Shown piece by piece: positions 60,908 through 62,378 of a stretch of 64,000 nucleotides of DNA (positions within the stretch are counted from its first letter, which is position 1; the number at the start of each line of letters is the position of its first letter). The DNA comes from Terriglobia bacterium (GTDB lineage Bacteria > Acidobacteriota > Terriglobia > JAJPHL01): assembly GCA_021325275.1 (NCBI GenBank), contig JAJPHL010000055.1, positions 62,001-126,000 of the forward strand. The letters are read 5' to 3'. The notes under the pieces are model-generated. The model was not told the origin of the DNA, did no database searches, and saw only the letters and a program-made list of their open reading frames with translations. The translations under genes and the position numbers were made by a program.

Positions 60908-61237
60908 CTAGTGGCGCTGCGCGGTCGTCATTTCCCTGCGTAAGGCCTCATTCATATGAGCCTGATACTCCTTACCCTGCGCCTCGAACCATGCCAGGAC
61001 GTCGGTGTCAATCTTGAGGCTGATCTGGCGCTGCGCTGGACGATGGAAACGTCCCACGTGAATGCGCTTTGGCGTGGTTTTCACCGGCGGAGCGTCCGAC
61101 GTGTCGATCTCGGAGTCCGACTTGCGGGCCAGTTGCTTCAGTTCCCTAAGCTCGCGAGGCGAGAGCGTCGTCGTAAAGAGCTCGCTCGCGCGGATCAGCC
61201 TTTCTCGCCGAGATGATCCTGATCTTTTCTTCGTCAT
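60908..61237 (-). CDS. brnA: BrnA-family antitoxin
   Basis: This 109-residue protein ends with the BrnA ribbon-helix-helix-like domain (QISLKIDTDVLAWFEAQGKEYQAHMNEAL). The ATG at 61237 has AGGGGAA five bases upstream and lies inside the 3' end of the brnT reading frame (92-base overlap). In the known BrnT/BrnA pair the antitoxin binds the toxin and represses the operon. The partner toxin gene is disrupted here. Confidence 0.9.
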   Translation of the reverse strand: MTKKRSGSSRRERLIRASELFTTTLSPRELRELKQLARKSDSEIDTSDAPPVKTTPKRIHVGRFHRPAQRQISLKIDTDVLAWFEAQGKEYQAHMNEALRREMTTAQRH

Positions 61238-61441
61238 TCTGTTCCCCTACAGTGTGAACCACCAGAATTAATGTAATTCCACCGGCCAATCCAATCGTGT
61301 GCCACCGCTCTTGTCTATCGACCACGCGCTCAACAAGAATCGGGCTAACCGAAAGAAGCACGGCATCTCGTTCGACACGGCCGCTCGCGCATTCAAGGAC
61401 GCAGATGCGGCATCCTTGGACTCGTCCCAAGCAAAAAGCAT
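61146..61441 (-). pseudogene. brnT: brnT toxin disrupted by an internal inversion
   Basis: On the minus strand, MLFAWDESK (from 61441) is the expected start of a BrnT RNase toxin, and ERVVDRQERWHTIGLAGG to the stop at 61146 is the expected second half (ending IRIISARKADPRERALYDD). The piece that should lie between them, NRANRKKHGISFDTAARAF, is found in the same place but on the plus strand (61332-61418). Inverting 61334-61418, bounded by CAAG and CTTG, restores frame at the left junction; the right junction is then off by one base. The gene is therefore broken as read. Confidence 0.82.
61334..61418. other. 85-bp inverted segment inside brnT
   Basis: Bounded by CAAG (61334-61337) and CTTG (61415-61418), a 4-base inverted repeat. 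The segment encodes BrnT residues only when read on the plus strand while its flanks encode BrnT on the minus strand. Confidence 0.78.
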
Positions 61442-61487
61442 GTCGAGAGATCGTAGCATGGCTCCCTCGGTGCGCTACAATCACGCC

Positions 61488-62378
61488 ATGCTGAAATCAT
61501 TCGTTCGATTCTTGGCGGTGACTTTTTTCCTCGCCGCGACGCTCTGCGCCGCTGCCATCGACAAAAAAGATGTCGAGTACGCACGGCCCGGTGGACACCC
61601 GGTGCTGCTCGACATGCACGTGCCAGACGGACCGGGACCGTTTCCCGCCGCCATCCTGATTCATGGCGGTGGATTCGACAGCGGCAGCAGAAGCAGCGGC
61701 TACATGAGTCCTACGTTCGATCTGTTTTCTCAAGTCGGCTTCGCATGGTTCACCATCGACTATCGCATGGCGCCGGAGTTCCGTTTCCCCGAGGCGCGCG
61801 AGGACGTGGAGAGCGCCATCAAATGGGTGAAAGCGCACGCCAAGGAATATCACCTCGATCCAGCGAAGATCGTTCTGGCAGGCGAATCGGCCGGCGGATT
61901 CCTGGTGAACTATGCAGGCACGCACGAAACGAAAGAAACGAAAGTCGCGGCGGTCGTCGATATTTACGGTCCCGTCGATTATGCGAAACTCGCCGTCGAG
62001 CGTCGCGACCATCCCGAGCGATTCAACATGAAGAGCATTGGCGGTCACCTGGCCAACGGCGGCAGTTCGCGATTCTTTCTTCCGGTGGGTGGCGCCGATC
62101 CGTCCGGCGACGCGGGTCTCGCCAAGCTGCGTGAAGTCTCGCCGCTCTTCGCGGTGCACAAAGGAATGCCGCCGTTTCTCTGCATCCACGGAACGAAGGA
62201 CGATCAAGTTTCCTACGAGCAGTCGCCAATGATGTGCGACGCGATGCACAAAGTGGGCGCGGTGTGCGACATTATCACGGTGGAAGGCGGCGGTCACGGC
62301 ATGAGCACGTGGAAAGCGCCGGAACAACAGCATTGGAAAACGGAAATGATCGAGTGGTTGAAGAAGACGCTGAAATAA
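61488..62378 (+). CDS. Secreted alpha/beta-hydrolase (acetyl-esterase/lipase type)
   Basis: This 296-residue protein has a signal peptide (1-22) and the alpha/beta-hydrolase set: oxyanion HGGGFDSGS, nucleophile GESAGG, acid near DDQVSYEQ and catalytic His in GGGHGMST. It is of the HSL/Aes type. The ATG at 61488 starts the signal peptide; longer starts reach into the brnT remnant. It converges on the DinB gene through hairpin R7. Confidence 0.9.
   Translation: MLKSFVRFLAVTFFLAATLCAAAIDKKDVEYARPGGHPVLLDMHVPDGPGPFPAAILIHGGGFDSGSRSSGYMSPTFDLFSQVGFAWFTIDYRMAPEFRFPEAREDVESAIKWVKAHAKEYHLDPAKIVLAGESAGGFLVNYAGTHETKETKVAAVVDIYGPVDYAKLAVERRDHPERFNMKSIGGHLANGGSSRFFLPVGGADPSGDAGLAKLREVSPLFAVHKGMPPFLCIHGTKDDQVSYEQSPMMCDAMHKVGAVCDIITVEGGGHGMSTWKAPEQQHWKTEMIEWLKKTLK

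What the first reader, a model, noticed from the sequence alone, without database searches (positions are those of the whole stretch)
61146..61441. In-place 85-bp inversion breaks a BrnT toxin gene
BrnT start (MLFAWDESK) and C-terminal half are on the minus strand, but the conserved middle (NRANRKKHGISFDTAARAF) reads on the plus strand exactly between them. Re-inverting 61334-61418 (CAAG/CTTG ends) rejoins DESK to NRANRKKHG in frame. It might be a phase-variable switch, a domesticating mutation that left BrnA free, or an assembly error.
Basis: partly seen in the sequence, partly recalled or inferred. Interest (0 to 1): 0.8.

Follow-up and report, generated by a model that had tools for sequence, protein, structure and literature searches.

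The report
Toxin gene killed by tiny inversion
A small bacterial toxin gene has been destroyed because 85 of its letters were flipped in place, while the neighbouring antidote gene is still intact; it looks like one recent example of the ordinary decay of such toxin genes rather than a reversible switch.

Summary
A brnT toxin gene lies on the minus strand, in front of an intact brnA. About 85 bp of its middle (61334-61418) reads on the plus strand, exactly between its two minus-strand remnants. Colinear, intact brnT-brnA pairs in related genomes show the ancestral order.

It is not a workable switch. From the brnT start codon to the first in-frame base of the C-terminal half is 110 nt, which is not a multiple of three. 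An inversion does not change length, so no flip inside the gene can restore the frame. The ends share only a 4-bp inverted repeat. The genome has no detectable serine recombinase, and none of its six tyrosine-recombinase matches is on this contig. The operator-like GTANNTAC box that the closest relatives carry 9-11 nt before the brnT start is also missing.

The best explanation is an irreversible microinversion, made by template switching or microhomology-mediated repair, that turned brnT into a pseudogene. Among 110 distinct brnT loci from mostly related genomes, 23 are broken, mostly by stops and frameshifts. The brnA domain is intact in 19 of those 23. Only this locus shows an inversion. 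An assembly error is unlikely but cannot be excluded without reads.

The parts
61415..61441 (-). brnT N-terminal remnant MLFAWDESK; its last bases lie inside the CTTG repeat. Carries the positions matching BrnT ribonuclease residues Asp6, Glu7 and Lys9
   Evidence: translation; alignment with intact homologues; residues from review PMC5086665
61334..61418 (+). inverted 85-bp middle segment of brnT (KNRANRKKHGISFDTAARAFKDADAASL reads on plus)
   Evidence: PF04365 profile positions 4-43 on the plus strand; tblastn with intact homologue 64% over 28 aa
61334..61337 (+). CAAG, left arm of the 4-bp inverted repeat at the inversion ends
   Evidence: longest inverted repeat between the two end regions
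61415..61418 (+). CTTG, right arm of the 4-bp inverted repeat
61146..61331 (-). brnT C-terminal half, out of frame with the start (110 nt from ATG to 61331)
   Evidence: PF04365 profile positions 39-77, 37 bits; frame arithmetic
61146..61484 (-). mechanical 112-aa open frame (GTG) running through the inverted segment into the C-terminal half; lacks the N-terminal catalytic residues, probably not a gene
   Evidence: the ORF listing
60908..61237 (-). brnA antitoxin, 109 aa, intact; its start overlaps the 3' end of brnT, as in relatives
   Evidence: PF14384 48.4 bits; full-length alignment with L010 and L043 brnA at about 52%; AGGGGA upstream of the ATG (sequence)
61450..61458 (-). TGCTACGAT, extended -10-like element kept at the position where relatives have TGCTAC/TGATAC
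   Evidence: upstream comparison; inferred promoter
61442..61449 (-). place where the closest relatives carry the GTANNTAC operator-like box; absent here (best match 3 mismatches)
61490..62378 (+). divergent neighbour: alpha/beta hydrolase (BD-FAE family) with a signal-peptide-like start; not part of the module
   Evidence: Pfam BD-FAE 135.7 bits; homologues align from about query residue 6-19 onward

Best explanation
The locus is a type II brnTA toxin-antitoxin module whose toxin gene was inactivated by an irreversible in-place microinversion. Shown here: an ancestral colinear brnT had about 85 bp of its middle flipped between CAAG and CTTG, the spacing is now one nucleotide short (mod 3), and brnA is intact. 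Inferred: a stalled or broken replication fork switched template between the short inverted repeats, or was repaired by microhomology-mediated break-induced replication. This copied the segment in reverse complement and dropped a base, probably at the distal joint. No single frame now carries all the ribonuclease residues, so no active BrnT is made. The cell tolerates this because losing the toxin, unlike losing the antitoxin, is harmless. BrnA is probably still translated from its own ribosome site and is decaying slowly or retained passively.
For: Three pieces in two orientations. Intact colinear brnT-brnA in L010, L043, L044, L045, L051 and many others. The 110-nt distance excludes restoration by flipping, and the KH-to-RW span is 32 aa in 34 of the 40 intact homologues with a usable span measurement and in all of the closest, against 95 nt (one short of 96) here. 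D6/E7/K9 are separated from R41 and E78, the residues reported as needed for activity (PMC5086665). The pieces are about as similar to homologues as homologues are to each other (means 55-70% against 61-70%), with 33 of 37 invariant columns kept, so the event is fairly recent. brnA is intact. The operator-like box is missing although the five closest relatives have it, one of them with a mismatch. No serine recombinase was found, and no tyrosine recombinase on this contig. Human-chimp microinversions have inverted repeats of 3 bp or longer at their ends (PMC8755829), and E. coli makes inverted template switches at 3-30 bp microhomology (PMC3161906). brnT decay with retained brnA is common in related genomes: 23 of 110 broken, 19 of 23 with the brnA domain intact.
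Against: No raw reads and no second genome of the species were available, so both the inversion and the 1-nt shift rest on one assembly. At 85 bp it is longer than the 17-33 bp microinversions of PMC8755829, and 4-bp arms are short. The mutational mechanism is inferred, not observed. The genome is alone in its family among those searched, so no close outgroup dates the event.
Confidence: 0.85

Rival explanations
1. An intragenic inverton: a recombinase flips the 85-bp segment to turn the BrnT toxin on and off.
For: The segment is inverted exactly in place and inverted repeats lie at both ends. Intragenic invertons are a known class (cited in PMC11892184).
Against: Flipping cannot restore the frame: 110 nt, not a multiple of 3. 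The arms are 4 bp, against 10-40 nt for invertons (PMC11892184). No serine recombinase was found, and no tyrosine recombinase on this contig. The operator box is lost as well. None of 109 other brnT loci shows a flipped segment.
Confidence: 0.02
2. Assembly or sequencing artefact: the real gene is intact or carries only a simple lesion.
For: A draft assembly of 75 contigs, and no reads available.
Against: An 85-bp segment with 4-bp ends fits within one read and offers no long repeat to confuse an assembler. Independent signs of decay (missing operator box, 4 of 37 invariant residues changed) point to a real pseudogene, though each of these could also be ordinary variation.
Confidence: 0.08
3. 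Domestication: loss of BrnT was selected and the orphan BrnA is kept as a free repressor or as an antitoxin against other BrnT copies.
For: brnA is intact with its own ribosome site. The genome has several other brnT matches, including L003, next to a brnA 36% identical to this one over 85 residues. The brnA domain is intact in 19 of 23 loci with broken brnT.
Against: The box that BrnA would be expected to bind is missing at its own locus. Antitoxin outliving toxin is expected without selection, since losing the antitoxin first would be lethal. No expression or binding data. Some loci were chosen by a brnA search.
Confidence: 0.15

Closest known systems
BrnT/BrnA type II toxin-antitoxin module (Brucella abortus BrnTA; PF04365 / PF14384)
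   Same: Toxin-first order, overlapping genes, BrnT residues of the active site recognisable in the pieces, BrnA with its C-terminal DNA-binding domain intact.
   Different: brnT is split across two strands and two frames, so it encodes no BrnT.
Microinversions flanked by short inverted repeats (human-chimp set, PMC8755829)
   Same: In-place inversion with the repeats exactly at its ends; repeats of 3 bp or more are found there.
   Different: 85 bp rather than 17-33 bp, with a 1-nt length change, in a bacterial coding gene.
Intragenic invertons (programmed, recombinase-driven inversions inside genes)
   Same: Inverted segment inside a coding sequence.
   Different: 4-bp rather than 10-40-nt repeats, no candidate recombinase nearby, and flipping would not give an open frame.
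Toxin-dead, antitoxin-alive TA remnants (orphan antitoxins)
   Same: Toxin broken, antitoxin intact; seen in 19 of 23 broken brnT loci here.
   Different: The lesion is an inversion, where the others are stops, frameshifts or N-terminal loss.

Membership tests
BrnTA toxin-antitoxin module | BrnT domain (PF04365) encoded | tested here: not met
   Domain present only as pieces on opposite strands and in different frames: a brnT pseudogene
BrnTA toxin-antitoxin module | BrnA antitoxin (PF14384) directly downstream, overlapping | tested here: met
   48.4 bits, above cut-off 26.1; start lies inside the brnT 3' end
BrnTA toxin-antitoxin module | operator in front of brnT | tested here: not met
   GTANNTAC exact in 43 of 89 loci against 1% in shuffles, and in 4 of the 5 closest (the fifth has 1 mismatch); best match here has 3 mismatches. 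That this box is the operator is itself inferred
Intragenic inverton / phase switch | inverted repeats of 10-40 nt at the ends | tested here: not met
   4 bp against the definition in PMC11892184
Intragenic inverton / phase switch | flipping gives an expressible ON form of the gene | tested here: not met
   110 nt from start to C-terminal frame; no inversion changes this length
Intragenic inverton / phase switch | invertase present | tested here: inconclusive
   No PF00239 in the genome, six PF00589 matches, none on this contig
Intragenic inverton / phase switch | both orientations present in the population | not testable with these tools
   no reads available
Microinversion at short inverted repeats | in-place inversion with inverted repeats at its ends | tested here: met
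   CAAG/CTTG exactly at the ends; in-register 4-bp repeat at this spacing has frequency 0.006 in the window

The most novel reading that the evidence does not exclude
brnT is repeatedly lost while brnA is kept in this bacterial class because orphan BrnA has a selected role (regulator or shared antitoxin), and the microinversion is one of several routes to that state.
Probability: 0.12. Interest if true: 0.5.

Novelty: new member of a known kind. Interest (0 to 1): 0.28.

Why it matters
It is a clean example of a bacterial coding gene inactivated by an in-place microinversion, a mutation that ordinary gene finders miss. It also shows, in a small survey, that brnT toxins often decay while their antitoxin stays, which bears on how chromosomal toxin-antitoxin modules are lost. 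It does not reveal a new system.

Tried and rejected
Phase switch: rejected by frame arithmetic, 4-bp repeats, lack of a recombinase nearby and loss of the operator box. Plus-strand fusion of the flipped segment to the hydrolase (ORF 61299-62378): rejected as chance, since hydrolase homologues align only from about query residue 6-19 on and none of the 11 hydrolase loci checked carries brnT or brnA pieces beyond one weak brnA match (L082, E 0.012). Chimeric 112-aa ORF 61146-61484 as a new protein: nothing supports it. A strong hairpin or cruciform as the cause: single-strand folding is no better than shuffles (z -0.51). A syntenic brnTA next to the hydrolase in relatives: none found. GTDB contig scan gave only two relatives and no conspecific. 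Papers on intragenic invertons (Nature 2024) and bacterial template switching (Lovett 2017) are not held. A search for papers on bacterial small inversions gave nothing.

Full report
Observation. The three pieces were read separately, each on its own strand and frame. Minus 61441-61415 reads MLFAWDESK. Plus 61335-61418 reads KNRANRKKHGISFDTAARAFKDADAASL. Minus 61331-61149 reads ERVVDRQERWHTIGLAGGITLILVVHTVGEQNDEEKIRIISARKADPRERALYDDALASRA and then a stop. Pfam BrnT_toxin (PF04365) matches the plus piece over profile 4-43 and the minus piece over 37-77. The two matches lie next to each other on opposite strands in a whole-genome search. The next gene, 61237-60908 minus, is an intact BrnA antitoxin (PF14384, 48.4 bits).

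Ancestral order. Intact colinear brnT genes followed by brnA are found in related genomes. L010 encodes MTFAWDENKNRINRRKHGVSFETAARVFEDPNVVSYRDRVVDEEERW... with brnA overlapping its end, and L043, L044, L045, L051 and many others agree. The closest DNA match (L010, 71%) covers window 61169-61331 and stops just before the left end of the flipped segment at 61334. The window therefore holds the derived, inverted form.

Frame. From the A of the start codon (61441) to the base before the first in-frame C-terminal codon (61331) there are 110 nt, remainder 2. Any inversion inside this interval leaves its length unchanged, so no inversion, with whatever end points, can bring start and C-terminal half into one frame. 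The span from KH to the RW of the conserved motif is 32 aa in 34 of 40 intact homologues with a usable measurement (the rest 31 or 33; four further pattern matches ran on too far and were set aside), and in all of the closest. In the window it is 95 nt, one short of 96. A base was therefore lost (mod 3), probably at the distal joint. I did not build or print a mended gene; the frame argument does not need one.

Ends and mechanism. The only inverted repeat of 4 bp or more joining the two end regions is CAAG/CTTG, exactly at the inversion ends. A 4-bp in-register repeat at this spacing occurs at 0.6% of sampled positions in the window, so it is modest support for a repeat-guided event. [quoted passage not shown] Inverted template switches at 3-30 bp microhomology are documented in E. 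coli (PMC3161906). Invertons have 10-40 nt repeats and an invertase (PMC11892184). No PF00239 serine recombinase was found in the genome, and none of six PF00589 matches is on this 253-kb contig. The single strand shows no unusual fold (z -0.51). The mechanism is inference.

Toxin activity. In Brucella BrnT, Asp6, Glu7, Lys9, Arg41 and Glu78 are important for ribonuclease activity (review PMC5086665). The matching D-E-x-K lies in the N-terminal piece. Arg41 and Glu78 fall, by position, in the C-terminal half, which is in another frame. The frame from the start codon 61441 ends at 61268 after 57 residues. The 112-aa open frame that reaches the C-terminal half starts upstream in another frame and lacks the N-terminal residues. 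No product carries the full active site.

Regulatory region. In 43 of 89 brnT loci an exact GTANNTAC box lies within 35 nt of the start, against 1% in shuffled sequence. The five closest relatives have it 9-11 nt before the start (L044 with one mismatch). The window has none (best match 3 mismatches), though it keeps the preceding TGCTACGAT, a likely extended -10. That this box is the BrnA operator is inferred from its position and from the known autoregulation of brnTA (PMC11980606; PMC5086665). Its absence looks like a second lesion, although 34 of 89 loci also lack a close match. brnA has an AGGGGA sequence before its ATG, so it can probably be translated alone.

Age. The pieces are on average 55-70% identical to seven intact homologues, which are 61-70% identical among themselves over the same stretches. 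The window keeps 33 of 37 columns invariant in those seven; intact homologues lose 0-4 in the same kind of test. The inversion is therefore recent compared with the divergence of these genes.

Context survey. Among 110 distinct brnT loci, mostly from the same class, 80 are intact, 23 are broken (10 with stops, 8 frameshifts, 4 without the N-terminal part, 1 inversion: this one) and 7 are ambiguous. The brnA DNA-binding domain is intact in 19 of the 23 broken cases and in 75 of 80 intact ones. The same genome holds another brnT split by a frameshift (L004). Cautions: the loci were found through BrnT or BrnA similarity and some were selected for brnA; many are draft assemblies in which frameshifts may be errors; the sorting into stop, frameshift and N-terminal loss was done by hand from the script's output.

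Conclusion. The finding is a real, fairly recent, irreversible microinversion that turned brnT into a pseudogene, in a family where toxin decay with antitoxin retention is common. The switch reading is contradicted, the assembly-error reading is unlikely but open, and a selected role for orphan BrnA is possible but unsupported.

Noticed in passing
L004 (same genome, contig C49 about 160715-160950): A second brnT-like gene in this genome is split by a frameshift (N-terminal piece in one frame, the rest in another) with no brnA domain found nearby.
   Followed up: partly
related loci L011, L023, L032, L046, L052, L058, L063, L066, L070, L084, L086, L092, L093, L096, L104, L106, L119, L125, L135, L136, L140: Many other brnT genes in related genomes are broken by stops, frameshifts or N-terminal loss, mostly with the brnA domain intact.
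   Followed up: partly
upstream of brnT in 43 of 89 loci: A GTANNTAC box close to the brnT start is strongly enriched over shuffled sequence; probably the BrnA operator, overlapping or following a -10-like element.
   Followed up: partly
window 61299-62378 plus: After the inversion, the flipped segment happens to be open in frame with the downstream hydrolase gene, giving a 359-aa ORF that automatic annotation could miscall.
   Followed up: yes
window 61432-61447, 61562-61577 and 61608-61617: The sequence around the brnT start (CAAAAAGCATGTCGAG) has a 14/16 direct copy and a 10-nt inverted copy inside the neighbouring hydrolase gene; probably chance.
   Followed up: no
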